Assembly: GCF_001668615.1 (NCBI RefSeq)
Contig: NZ_LZMC01000032.1
Coordinates: forward strand, 16,265 to 80,264
Direction of reading: 5' to 3'
Source of the DNA: Mycobacterium sp. 1274761.0
GTDB lineage: Bacteria > Actinomycetota > Actinomycetes > Mycobacteriales > Mycobacteriaceae
Length of the DNA stretch: 64,000 nucleotides
Positions 59,160 through 64,000 of the stretch are shown piece after piece (position 1 is the stretch's first letter; every line of letters begins with the position of its first letter). Below the pieces are notes generated by a model. It did not search any database. It was not told the DNA's origin and saw only the letters and a list, made by a program, of their open reading frames with translations. Both the position numbers and the translations under genes were made by a program.

Positions 59160-60509
59160 TTGAATCGAGTGCAGGTTGAGATCCTCGAGACGTCCGGGCT
59201 GGGTGACCGCAGCTACGTCGTAACTGATGCGGACGTGGCGGTCGTCGTCGATCCGCAACGCGACATCGACCGGGTGCTCGACCTCGTCGGCCAGGCACGC
59301 ATCACCCACGTGCTGGAAACACACATTCACAACGACTACGTCACGGGCGGACTGGAGTTGTCCCGGGCCGTCGGCGCAGAATACGTCGTCCCCGCCGGCG
59401 AGAAACTGGGCTACCCGGCGCGCCGGGTTCGCGACGGCGATGTCATCGACGCCGGCACGATCTCGCTGCGCGTCATCCACACCCCCGGCCACACTCACCA
59501 CCACGTCAGCTACGAACTGCTCGACGAGACAGGCCGCACCGCAGGTGTCTTCACCGGCGGCTCGCTGCTGTTCGGCAGCACAGGCCGCACGGACCTGGTC
59601 GGCGACGACCAAACCGAAGCCCTGACCCGCGCGCAGTACCGATCCGTGCGGCGGCTCGCCGAGTCCCTTACCGCCGACGCACCGATCTACCCCACGCACG
59701 GTTTCGGCAGCTTCTGCTCCGCCACACCCGTCGACGACGACTCATCGACCATCGGCGAACAGCGCGACACCAACCCCGCGCTGACCAAGAGCGAACGGGA
59801 CTTCGTCGACGAGTTGCTGGCTGGGCTGTCAGCCTATCCGGCGTACTACGCCCACATGGGTGTCATCAACGCCGAAGGGCCGCCGTCGGTTGACCTTTCG
59901 CTGCCAAAGCCGCTCGACGCCGATGAGCTGCGCCGCCGACTCGAGGCCGGGGAGTGGGTGGTCGACCTTCGGCACCGAGTCGCCTTCGCCGCCGGACACC
60001 TGGCGGGCAGCCTCGGCTTCGAATCGTCGGGGTCGTTCGTCACCTATCTCGGATGGCTGCACCCGTGGGGCACCCCCTTGACCCTGATCGCCGAGGACGA
60101 AGACCAAATCGCCGGGGCACGACGCGAACTCGCGCGGATCGGCATCGACGACATCGCAGGCGCGGCCCCCGTTCACGCGGCCGAGGATGCGGGCGACCAA
60201 CGCGCTTATCGGGTGGCCGATTTCGCTGCGCTGGCCGACGTCATCGCCGAAGACGGGCCGACAGTCCTCGATGTGCGCCAACCCGACGAGTTCAGCGAAT
60301 CCCGCGTCACGGGAGCGGTGAACATCCCACTTCACGAACTGCTCGACCGCATCGGCGAGCTTCCCGACGGCCCGACCTGGGTGCACTGCGCCAGCGGCTA
60401 CCGTGCATCGATCGCCGCCTCCATACTGGACAGCTGCGGCCGCGACGTGGTGTTGATCGACGACGACTTCGACGCTGCGAAAAACCTCGGCATCACCTCA
60501 ACTGACTGA
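59160..60509 (+). CDS. MBL-fold hydrolase fused to rhodanese domains (persulfide dioxygenase-like)
   Basis: 449 residues. The N-terminal metallo-beta-lactamase has ETHIHNDYVTGGLELS (the usual HxHxDH reads HIHNDY in this subfamily), IRVIHTPGHTHHH-type second motif (RVIHTPGHTHHHVSYEL) and PIYPTHGFGSFC. A degenerate rhodanese follows, and a C-terminal rhodanese has active Cys in WVHCASGYRASIAA. Likely oxidises glutathione or mycothiol persulfide and passes sulfur. TTG at 59160 or GTG at 59169 are possible starts. Confidence 0.85.
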   Translation: MNRVQVEILETSGLGDRSYVVTDADVAVVVDPQRDIDRVLDLVGQARITHVLETHIHNDYVTGGLELSRAVGAEYVVPAGEKLGYPARRVRDGDVIDAGTISLRVIHTPGHTHHHVSYELLDETGRTAGVFTGGSLLFGSTGRTDLVGDDQTEALTRAQYRSVRRLAESLTADAPIYPTHGFGSFCSATPVDDDSSTIGEQRDTNPALTKSERDFVDELLAGLSAYPAYYAHMGVINAEGPPSVDLSLPKPLDADELRRRLEAGEWVVDLRHRVAFAAGHLAGSLGFESSGSFVTYLGWLHPWGTPLTLIAEDEDQIAGARRELARIGIDDIAGAAPVHAAEDAGDQRAYRVADFAALADVIAEDGPTVLDVRQPDEFSESRVTGAVNIPLHELLDRIGELPDGPTWVHCASGYRASIAASILDSCGRDVVLIDDDFDAAKNLGITSTD

Positions 60510-60548
60510 AATACCCCGTCGTCGCGCCCTCGTGTCACACCCCCGTGG

Positions 60549-60554
60549 CAGAAT
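60549..60554 (+). promoter_or_regulatory. Putative -10 box, leaderless SOS promoter
   Basis: CAGAAT, 7 nt before the ATG at 60562, touching the SOS box. With LexA bound, both -10 and start site would be covered. Confidence 0.4.
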
Positions 60555-60569
60555 CGAACGTATGTTCGA
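60554..60569. promoter_or_regulatory. Perfect SOS (LexA) box
   Basis: TCGAAC-GTAT-GTTCGA, the exact mycobacterial/Gram-positive LexA palindrome TCGAAC-N4-GTTCGA. The ATG of the downstream gene (60562-60564) lies within it. Confidence 0.85.
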
Positions 60570-61968
60570 GGGCGTTGATGACGCGGGCTTGGTGGCCACC
60601 ATTGAGGAAGCGACCTGCGCCGAAAACGCTGCTGCGGCGTTGCGGTCGGCGGCCATCGGCGCACTGTTGCAGCGCCGCCTGCCCGAACCCGACGATGACG
60701 AACGGGCGCTGTGGGCGTGCGACGGGTTCGACTCCACCGCCGCCGAAGTTGCTGCGGCAATGAACATTTCCCACGGCAAGGCCTGCGGCCAGCTGCGCAT
60801 CGCCGAATCGCTGCGCGACCACCTACCCACAGTTGCCGCACTGTTCGTCCGTGGCGAGCTGAGTGCCCGGGTGGTTGGGACGATCACGTGGCGCACCCGG
60901 CTGATCGTCGAGGACACCGCATGGGCACAGATCGACGAGGAACTGTGCCGACGCGCCCAGACGTGGGGGCCGATGGCCGACGACCGGCTGAGCTCCGCCC
61001 TGGACGCGGTGATTTATCAGTTCGATCCGGCCGCGGTGATCGCGGTCAAGCAGCGCGCTCGCGGACGCGATGTCACCGTCGGTAATTACGAAGACGAGGC
61101 CGGGACGGTGTCGATATTCGGGCGGCTGATGGCGACTGACGGGGCCCTGCTGGAGAAGAAGATCGCCGCCATTGCCGCTACGGTATGCGCGGATGATCCC
61201 CGCAGCCCCGGTGAGCGCCGCTCGGATGCGCTCGCCGCTCTGGCCGACCTCAACGATCACCTCACCTGCCGATGCGCCAACCCCGACTGCCCGGTCAAAG
61301 ACCAATCCGCGCAACGGTCCTCGGTGGTGATCTCGGTGATCGCTGACCAGCCTGCGATCAGCGCTGCCCGTACCGACAGCGACAGCGATGGTGCTGCGGT
61401 GATGCTCGACGACAAGTCACCGGTGCCCACCCCCCTGTTGAGTGATCTGCTGGCCAAAGGCGCGACGGTCAAACCTCTTGCCCCGCCGTGCGATGAGAAA
61501 CCGGAGCCGCGTTACCGGCCGTCGGCCAAACTGGCGGCGTTCGTGCGCGCACGCGACCTGACGTGTCGTTTCCCGGGCTGTCGGGTACCCGCGAGCCGCT
61601 GTGATATCGACCATGTCGTGCCGTACCCGATCGGGGGCACCCACCCCTCGGACCTGGTTTGCCTATGCCGCAAACACCATCTGCTCAAGACGTTCTGGGT
61701 CGGTGATTGGTCGCTGACTCTGGCGGCTGACGGCTCGGCGACGTGGACCTCACCGACCGGCAAAACCTACGTCACCCATTCCGGGAGCCGGGCGTTGTTT
61801 CCCGACTGGGACACCACCACGGCGCAACTTCCTACGTCGGAATCACGTACTCCGCCAGAGCCCCTGCGATGGCAGATGATGCCCGTCCGAAAGCAAGCCA
61901 GGGCCGCTCAACGCAAAGCCCGCATCGACGCCGAACGCAAACATGACAGCACCGGCCCGCCCGTCTGA
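60562..61968 (+). CDS. DUF222 / HNH endonuclease, 13E12 repeat family
   Basis: 468 residues. N-terminal DUF222 helical domain (SARVVGTITWRTRLIVED) and a C-terminal HNH domain: RARDLTCRFPGCRVPASRCD, IDHVVPYPIGG and CLCRKHHLLK, with zinc Cys and catalytic HV/H residues. A family that is multicopy in mycobacteria, likely tied to mobile DNA; several copies are known LexA targets. ATG at 60562 chosen (MFEGVDDAG); an upstream in-frame GTG would place the SOS box inside the gene. Confidence 0.9.
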   Translation: MFEGVDDAGLVATIEEATCAENAAAALRSAAIGALLQRRLPEPDDDERALWACDGFDSTAAEVAAAMNISHGKACGQLRIAESLRDHLPTVAALFVRGELSARVVGTITWRTRLIVEDTAWAQIDEELCRRAQTWGPMADDRLSSALDAVIYQFDPAAVIAVKQRARGRDVTVGNYEDEAGTVSIFGRLMATDGALLEKKIAAIAATVCADDPRSPGERRSDALAALADLNDHLTCRCANPDCPVKDQSAQRSSVVISVIADQPAISAARTDSDSDGAAVMLDDKSPVPTPLLSDLLAKGATVKPLAPPCDEKPEPRYRPSAKLAAFVRARDLTCRFPGCRVPASRCDIDHVVPYPIGGTHPSDLVCLCRKHHLLKTFWVGDWSLTLAADGSATWTSPTGKTYVTHSGSRALFPDWDTTTAQLPTSESRTPPEPLRWQMMPVRKQARAAQRKARIDAERKHDSTGPPV

Positions 61969-62534: not shown

Positions 62535-63896
62535 TTACATCGGCGCGTTGGCCGGCTGGAAAACCCCTGAGCTGTCGGACTCCTCCTCGGCGCGGATGAC
62601 ATGAACCACCGCATTGATCAGCGCCAGGTGGGTGAACGCCTGCGGGAAGTTCCCGAGATGGCGCCCGGTGCGCGGCTCGATCTCCTCGGCGTAGAGATGC
62701 AGCGGGCTGGCGAACGACAGTAGCCGTTCGCACAGTCGCTTGGCGCGATGAATCTCGCCGATCTCGACCAGCGCCGACACCAGCCAGAACGAGCAGATCG
62801 TGAACGTGCCCTCCTCGCCGGACAAGCCGTCGTCGGTCTCCTCGACCCTGTAGCGCAGCACCAGTCCGTCAACCGTCAGCTCGTCGGCGATCGCCAGCAC
62901 AGTGGCCCTGATGCGCGGATCGTCGGGCGGCAGAAAGCGGGTGAGCACCGCCAGCAGCAGTGAGGCGTCCAGCGCGTCGTCGCCGTAGCGCTGCGTGAGC
63001 ACGCCGCGGGAGTCGACGCCGTTGGCCAGGATGTCGGCCTTGATCTCCTCGGCGATCGCACGCCACTGCTGCGCGTAGGACCTCTCGCCCTCGATCTCGG
63101 CCAGCTTGGCTCCCCGGTCGAGTGCGACCCAGCACATGATTTTGCTCGACGTGAAGTGCTGCGGCTCGCCGCGCACCTCCCAGATCCCGCGGTCGGGTTC
63201 TTTCCAGTGCTTGATGGCCTCTTCGACTTGTTGCTTGAGCACCGGCCACAGCGTCTCGGGGATCTGCTCGCGCGACTTCGTGTGCAGGTAGACCGAATCC
63301 AGCATCGTGCCCCAGATGTCGTGCTGCATCTGGTTGTAGGCGCCGTTGCCGATCCGCACCGGCCGGGCGTTGTCGTAGCCCGACAGGTGGTGCAGCTCCT
63401 CTTCAACCAGGGTGCGTTCCCCGCCAACGGCGTACATCACCTGAAGGGGGTGTCGTTCACCGTTGTTGGCGCCCGACACGTCGGCGATGAACGCGAAGAA
63501 GTCGTCGGCCTCCCGATCCAGCCCCAGGGTGTACAGACCCCACAACGCGAACGTCGAGTCGCGCACCCAGGCGTAGCGGTAATCCCAATTGCGTTCTCCC
63601 TGAGGGGTTTCCGGCAGCGACGTCGTTGGTGCCGCCAGCAGTGCACCGGTCGGCGAATACGTCAGCCCCTTCAACGTCAACGCGCTGCGCTGAAGGTAGG
63701 CGCGCCATGGGTGGTCGGGAAAGTCACCGACGTTGATCCACTGCCGCCAGCATTCGCTGGTCTGCCACATCTTGTCGGCGGCTTCGTCGTAGGTCTGCGG
63801 CGACGGATGCTTCGACCAGCTCAACGCGACGAAGACGTTGTCGCCTTCCTTCATTCGCGTGCGGGCCCGGGCTTCCCGGCCCTCGAGACCGATGCG
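62535..63896 (-). pseudogene. Trehalase (GH15), catalytic C-terminal part, cut at 63896
   Basis: 454 codons from RIGLEGREARARTRM to the stop. GH15 signatures: ERNWDYRYAWVRDSTFALWG (substrate pocket and general acid Glu region), SSKIMCWVALDRGAKLA, and the second catalytic region RVEETDDGLSGEEGTFTICS. Mycobacterial Rv2402/MSMEG_4535-type enzymes hydrolyse trehalose and have ~640-670 residues. Upstream of RIGLEG the minus-strand frame becomes Arg/Pro-rich and unlike the family, while the expected preceding sequence is found on the plus strand (63897-64000). First internal ATG is 63854. If the inversion is real, the enzyme is inactive. Confidence 0.75.
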
Positions 63897-64000
63897 CTGG
63901 TGATGGGGCCGTGGCACGACATCGAATCGCGGTCGCGGACGCACCGCCGCACGCCGATGGACTGGGACGCCGAGCACATCCTGTTGCGCACCGTGCGGTG
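63897..64000 (+). pseudogene. Trehalase (GH15), upstream segment in opposite orientation
   Basis: An open plus-strand stretch to the window end encodes LVMGPWHDIESRSRTH, then RRTPMDWDAEHILLRTVR. From memory, this sequence lies N-terminal to the RIGLEGREAR block in mycobacterial GH15 trehalases. Here it faces the other way, sharing the bases around 63891-63896 with the minus-strand fragment. The remainder of the gene lies beyond the window. Confidence 0.65.

What the first reader, a model, noticed from the sequence alone, without database searches (positions are those of the whole stretch)
63840..64000. Trehalase gene switches strand at about 63896: inversion or misassembly
Minus-strand GH15 coding sequence is typical up to RIGLEGREAR (63896) and then turns into Arg/Pro-rich sequence. 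At the same point the plus strand begins a family-like segment (LVMGPWHDIE, RTPMDWDAEHILLRTVR) that belongs N-terminal to it. A simple inversion of an internal segment gives exactly this junction: the start of the inverted piece lies next to RIGLEG, read in the opposite direction. It could be a programmed or accidental inversion, or an assembly error. If real, trehalose hydrolysis by this enzyme is off in this orientation.
Basis: partly seen in the sequence, partly recalled or inferred. Interest (0 to 1): 0.8.

Follow-up and report, generated by a model that had tools for sequence, protein, structure and literature searches.

The report
Fold-back artefact at contig end
The apparent flip inside this mycobacterial trehalase (sugar-splitting) gene sits in the last 111 bases of an assembled DNA piece and is most likely a fold-back sequencing artefact, one of 15 similar pairs of contig ends in this assembly, so the gene is probably whole in the living cell and the finding is ordinary.

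Summary
The strand switch is in the sequence, but the window's end is the end of contig C32. Its last 111 bases (63890-64000) are identical, in the same direction, to the last 111 bases of contig C83, where the gene's 5' part runs through that point in native order. A fixed inversion does not fit this. In 109 of 109 loci of relatives examined, both parts lie on one strand, most often 165 nt apart; that stretch was not found in the readable contigs here. The assembly has 15 pairs of contig ends with shared same-direction tails of 111-608 bases. In 14 of 15, one contig folds back on itself through a 6-16 base inverted match, the form that a toy graph gives for one-sided fold-back molecules and not for inversions. 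C32/C83 is the 15th: same junction type, 7-base match inferred, loop not closed because of the gap. Verdict: contig-end fold-back chimera; the gene is probably intact. That the chimera arose in library preparation or amplification is inferred; no reads were available, and 35 of 113 contigs were masked.

The parts
62535..63896 (-). 3' part of a GH15 trehalase-like gene, from RIGLEG to the stop codon
   Evidence: Open frame 62535-63998; Pfam Glyco_hydro_15 E 2.6e-72; 86-96% identical homologues in 39 of 40 congeners searched
63890..63896 (.). CGATGCG, inferred 7-base inverted match at which the fold-back joined
   Evidence: Lies in the tail shared with C83 and also reads as the R-I-G codons on the minus strand. 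Inferred: the native sequence left of RIGLEG was not found in this genome
63890..64000 (+). Fold-back tail: copy of a piece of the gene's 5' part, in the wrong orientation relative to the 3' part
   Evidence: Identical, same direction, to C83:6580-6690, the end of C83; maps to the opposite strand from the rest in 4 of 4 relatives
64000..64000 (.). End of contig C32 (80264 bp)
   Evidence: Window = C32:16265-80264; contig length 80264

Best explanation
The strand switch lies in the last 111 bases of a contig, the same 111 bases end a second contig where the gene's first part runs on normally, and it is most likely a one-sided fold-back chimera kept by the assembler at a gap, not an inversion in the bacterium. 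Steps: (1) inferred: during library preparation or amplification a single-stranded 3' end from the gene's 3' part annealed through a short inverted match (CGATGCG) to a copy of the nearby 5' part and was extended, giving molecules that switch strand there; (2) inferred: about 165 nt of the gene between the two parts failed to assemble, so the true continuation was missing and the chimeric join was kept; (3) shown: both contigs end in the same tail, in the same direction, at the same base. The gene is predicted, not shown, to be an ordinary intact GH15 trehalase that spans C83, the gap and C32.
For: Window end = contig end. Last 111 bases identical to the end of C83, same direction, and found at no third place in that search apart from a 68% match elsewhere in the query. 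C83 reads through the point in native order: contiguous 198-base match to an intact relative, TREH_N domain on that frame. The C83 neighbours (binding protein, permease, ABC ATPase) lie beside the gene in 21 of 23 mycobacterial named loci with full flanks. 109 of 109 loci of relatives have both parts on one strand. 15 pairs of contig ends share same-direction tails of 111-608 bases; in 14 of 15 one contig is a hairpin closed by a 6-16 base inverted match; 3 of those 14 were tested and map in 4 of 4 relatives as two neighbouring opposite-strand pieces, as the end at 64000 does. A toy k=77 graph gives this form for fold-back molecules and another for inversions. Published precedents for the process: PMC10908179 (abstract and passages) and PMC1855051 (abstract and passages).
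Against: No reads or coverage were available. C32/C83 is the one of the 15 pairs without the closed hairpin, so it is assigned to the class by its junction and shared tail. Its 7-base match is inferred, since the native sequence left of RIGLEG was not found here. Why the tail stops at 111 bases, and why 165 nt are missing, is not explained. 35 of 113 contigs were masked and could not be examined. I do not know how the DNA was prepared or which assembler was used.
Confidence: 0.87

Rival explanations
1. Assembler-made join: no chimeric molecules existed, and a gap-closing or path-extension step joined the two ends wrongly.
For: The join lies at a contig end beside an unassembled stretch.
Against: The joins fall on inverted matches of 6-16 bases in 14 of 14 closed cases, as expected for annealing of strands; a graph with overlap 77 would normally need reads that contain the join. 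Recalled, not tested: gap closers can act on short overlaps.
Confidence: 0.07
2. Reversible (programmed or sporadic) inversion of the segment in part of the population, with both orientations in the reads.
For: Both orientations of the 111 bases occur in the assembly, one on each contig. This pair's loop is not closed, so the graph argument used for the other 14 does not strictly exclude a mixture here.
Against: Contig C83 shows no branch to the flipped segment at its join. The inverted match is 7 bases at most by inference and is not conserved: CGCATCG at the RIG codons in 19 of 109 relatives, CGATGCG on the other side in 6 of 109. 109 of 109 loci of relatives show the native order. No recombinase domain among the 7 proteins of this genome scanned nearby; the wider neighbourhood was not scanned. 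A mixed inversion gives a shared edge ending inside the segment in the toy graph, unlike the other 14 pairs.
Confidence: 0.03
3. A real inverted duplication: the genome carries a second, reversed copy of part of the 5' region next to the 3' part.
For: Two contigs that end in one shared tail are also what a real repeat gives in such an assembly (5 same-direction sharings of exactly 77 bases look like ordinary repeat boundaries).
Against: It would split a gene that is in one piece of native order in 109 of 109 loci of relatives, and the 14 look-alikes would each need such an event.
Confidence: 0.02
4. A fixed accidental inversion that breaks the gene.
For: The junction on C32 alone looks like one side of an inversion.
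Against: The other side is missing: C83 runs into the same segment in native direction.
Confidence: 0.01

Closest known systems
Library-preparation chimeras at natural inverted repeats (PDSM model, PMC10908179; abstract and passages seen)
   Same: Strand switch at a short inverted match, with the stretch beyond it reverse-complemented; one-sided
   Different: Described in reads of human DNA, not at contig ends of a bacterial draft genome; read-level evidence not available here
Inverted chimeras of multiple displacement amplification (PMC1855051; abstract and passages seen)
   Same: Mostly inverted joins (85% there), usually primed at matches of 2-21 nt; the 6-16 bases here lie in that range
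   Different: It is not known whether this DNA was amplified; the published set also has joins up to and beyond 10 kb apart, here loops are 101-438 bases
Mycobacterial GH15 trehalase (review PMC10969515; passages seen)
   Same: TREH_N part on C83 and GH15 part on C32; close homologues in 39 of 40 congeners searched
   Different: Split over two contigs with about 55 codons not assembled
Invertible DNA elements (phase-variable inversions; recalled)
   Same: A segment seen in both orientations
   Different: No long inverted repeats, no second junction, native order in all relatives examined, no recombinase among the neighbours scanned

Membership tests
Fold-back (inverted) chimera | Strand switch joining nearby sequence in inverted orientation | tested here: met
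   Two opposite-strand pieces close together in 4 of 4 relatives
Fold-back (inverted) chimera | One-sided: native join present on the other side | tested here: met
   C83 runs through the point in native order
Fold-back (inverted) chimera | Short inverted match at the join | tested here: inconclusive
   6-16 bases in the 14 closed pairs; at C32/C83 7 bases inferred from the R-I-G codons only
Fold-back (inverted) chimera | Closed hairpin: contig returns into its own flank | tested here: not met
   Met in 14 of 15 pairs, not in C32/C83, whose tail stops 111 bases in. This is a feature of the assembled form, not of every chimera
Fold-back (inverted) chimera | Minority of reads at the join | not testable with these tools
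   No reads available
Programmed DNA inversion | Both junctions of the flipped segment | tested here: not met
   Only the right-hand one is present; C83 has the native left side
Programmed DNA inversion | Conserved flanking inverted repeats | tested here: not met
   CGCATCG in 19 of 109 and CGATGCG in 6 of 109 relatives
Programmed DNA inversion | Recombinase gene nearby | tested here: inconclusive
   None among 7 proteins of this genome scanned; the rest of the neighbourhood not scanned
GH15 trehalase | GH15 catalytic domain | tested here: met
   PF00723 E 2.6e-72 on the C32 piece
GH15 trehalase | Trehalase-like N-terminal domain | tested here: met
   PF19291 TREH_N E 1.3e-14 on the C83 piece
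GH15 trehalase | NCBIfam trehalase equivalog cut-off | tested here: inconclusive
   Pieces match archaeal TreH1/TreH2 models below their cut-offs: 316.7 of 820 and 290.7 of 1000 bits, 50.3 and 46.3 bits
GH15 trehalase | Trehalose hydrolysis | not testable with these tools
   No activity data

The most novel reading that the evidence does not exclude
The 15 one-sided fold-backs arise in the cell, not in the tube: replicating DNA of this mycobacterium switches template at 6-16 base inverted matches often enough to reach the assembly, and the trehalase gene is one of the sites.
Probability: 0.02. Interest if true: 0.6.

Novelty: not a real feature. Interest (0 to 1): 0.08.

Why it matters
It removes a false inversion and a false gene loss. 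The by-product is a simple check for draft genomes: contig ends that share a tail in the same outward direction, longer than the assembler's overlap and closed by a short inverted match, point to fold-back chimeras and deserve trimming before gene calls or claims of inversion. Here 30 of 156 readable contig ends are in such pairs.

Tried and rejected
Fixed inversion: rejected, because C83 holds the native left side. Ordinary repeat boundary: unlikely, because these are the only two places with the 111 bases in this genome's search and the shared tail is 111, not 77. Strand-switched letters as the normal protein: rejected, relatives have about 55 other codons there, beginning CVSG in all 30 rows printed. 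The missing stretch: probes from an intact relative found only C83, C32 and, for the protein, a second GH15 gene on C38, besides chance DNA matches of E 0.009 and worse; masked contigs cannot be judged. Low GC or extreme GC as the cause of the gap: GC of the 165-nt stretch in relatives is 0.62-0.71, mean 0.67, n = 65, nothing unusual for such genomes, so this gave no explanation. Solved structures: no PDB chain matched the intact relative by sequence at E 0.001. Inverted repeats of 10 bases or more around the join: none that joins the two sides. A paper search for fold-backs at contig ends of such assemblies listed one paper, a yeast sequencing benchmark, not opened; one search is no proof that this signature is undescribed. 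Frame statistics through the joins only helped to guess which contig was native; one guess from them (C25/C21) was the wrong way round. One search was a first pass spoiled by masked contigs and was replaced. One search was of no use.

Recalled, from no call: the likeness of the neighbourhood to M. tuberculosis Rv2397c-Rv2402, the gene names cysA/cysT/cysW/subI/cysH (the calls show domains), and the SPAdes-like nature of k = 77.

Full report
WHAT IS THERE. The window is C32:16265-80264 of a 113-contig, 5.08-Mb genome and ends exactly at the end of C32. On the minus strand an open frame with its stop at 62535 encodes a GH15 protein (Pfam Glyco_hydro_15, E 2.6e-72). The match to relatives begins at RIGLEG, at about 63896. 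The last 111 bases, 63890-64000, read on the plus strand as a piece of the same family that belongs N-terminal to RIGLEG.

THE SECOND CONTIG. The same 111 bases, in the same direction, are the last 111 bases of contig C83, 6,690 bp. There they continue an open frame of 160 residues that carries the trehalase-like N-terminal domain (TREH_N, E 1.3e-14) and runs off the contig end. A probe from an intact relative matches C83 without a break for 198 bases through this point. Elsewhere on C83 lie proteins with domains of a solute-binding protein, a transport permease, an ABC ATPase and a PAPS reductase; a further permease-like frame was not scanned. Homologues of the first three lie beside the gene in 21 of 23 mycobacterial named loci held with full flanks; over all named loci with full flanks the binding protein does so in 35 of 57. 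C83 and C32 are therefore very likely the two sides of one gene. An inversion would need the C83 side to run into the far end of the segment, and it does not.

RELATIVES. A search of 40 congeners found a close homologue (86-96% identity) in 39; one has only a 44% match. In 109 of 109 loci examined (29 congener loci, the ones fetched, and 80 named loci, the capped best of 585; some genomes may be in both sets) the two parts lie on one strand, and in 108 of 109 in one frame. The spacing is 165 nt in 65, 156 in 28, and 153-186 in the other 16. The stretch between them was not found in this genome outside the masked contigs.

THE ASSEMBLY AS A WHOLE. I compared both ends of all 113 contigs (fetched). 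35 contigs read N at their ends and were dropped; 156 ends of 78 contigs remain. Of 14 ordinary overlaps, 13 are exactly 77 bases and one is 24, so the graph overlap is 77. Of 22 same-direction shared tails of 15 bases or more, 5 are exactly 77, two (45 and 17 bases) look like repeat or low-complexity ends, and 15 are 111-608 bases long. In 14 of these 15 exactly one contig of the pair is a hairpin: the reverse complement of its last 77 bases (170 in one case) is its own flank and reaches 6-16 bases past the join, with loops of 101-438 bases. The other contig of each of these pairs has no hairpin. The other end of C32, outside this window, is one of the 14. Three of the 14 were tested against four relatives; each maps there as two neighbouring opposite-strand pieces, as the end at 64000 does.

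WHY FOLD-BACK RATHER THAN INVERSION. In a toy graph (one random genome, k = 77) native sequence plus fold-back molecules gives a shared edge of 238 bases where loop + 77 is 236; a mixed inversion gives a shared edge of 172 that stays inside the segment, and extra junction edges on both flanks; a fixed inversion gives no break (the 2-4 extra bases are chance matches). In the 14 closed pairs the tail is loop + 77 (13 pairs) or loop + 170 (one), the fold-back form. C32/C83 shares the junction type, the same-direction tail and the intact left side, but its loop is not closed. It is assigned to the class on those grounds, and this is the weakest link: a mixture of orientations at this one site is unlikely but not strictly excluded.

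PROCESS. Chimeric reads that switch strand at natural inverted repeats are described for sonicated libraries, and at palindromes for enzyme-cut ones (PMC10908179, abstract and passages). Phi29 amplification gave inverted chimeras in 406 of 475 cases, most of them primed at short matches, 2-21 nt in over 70% by the abstract (PMC1855051, abstract and passages). Which of the two acted here, if either, is not known. GH15 trehalase of M. smegmatis and M. tuberculosis is reported in the review PMC10969515 (passages).

VERDICT. An assembly artefact at a contig end. The gene is predicted, not shown, to be intact, and a second GH15 gene is present on C38, so no loss of trehalose hydrolysis can be read from this. 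Interest is low; the contig-end signature is a useful check.

Noticed in passing
L149:1-178 (start of contig C32, outside the window): The other end of the same contig is also a fold-back: shared 178-base tail with C113, 9-base inverted match, loop 101.
   Followed up: yes
Contig ends of G000, 14 pairs besides C32/C83: Systematic fold-back ends in this assembly; C74 has one at each end.
   Followed up: partly
G000, 35 contigs of 508-2591 bases: Ends read N (masked); they could not be examined.
   Followed up: no
G000:C38:184991-186730: A second GH15 gene, 40% identical to an intact relative of this one, open frame 603 codons.
   Followed up: no
window 60532-61968: DUF222-domain gene beside a rhodanese/metallo-beta-lactamase gene at 59160-60509; nothing unusual seen.
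   Followed up: no
G033:C97:6133-7497 and G030: One congener carries a second close copy of the gene (81% identity besides 96%); another has only a distant match (44%).
   Followed up: no
L091 (Prescottella defluvii): The two parts of the gene lie in different frames, 158 nt apart: a frameshift or sequencing error.
   Followed up: no
Starts of contigs C35 and C92: Nearly identical ends running into a G-rich stretch (17 identical bases at the very end); possibly a low-complexity sequencing end.
   Followed up: no
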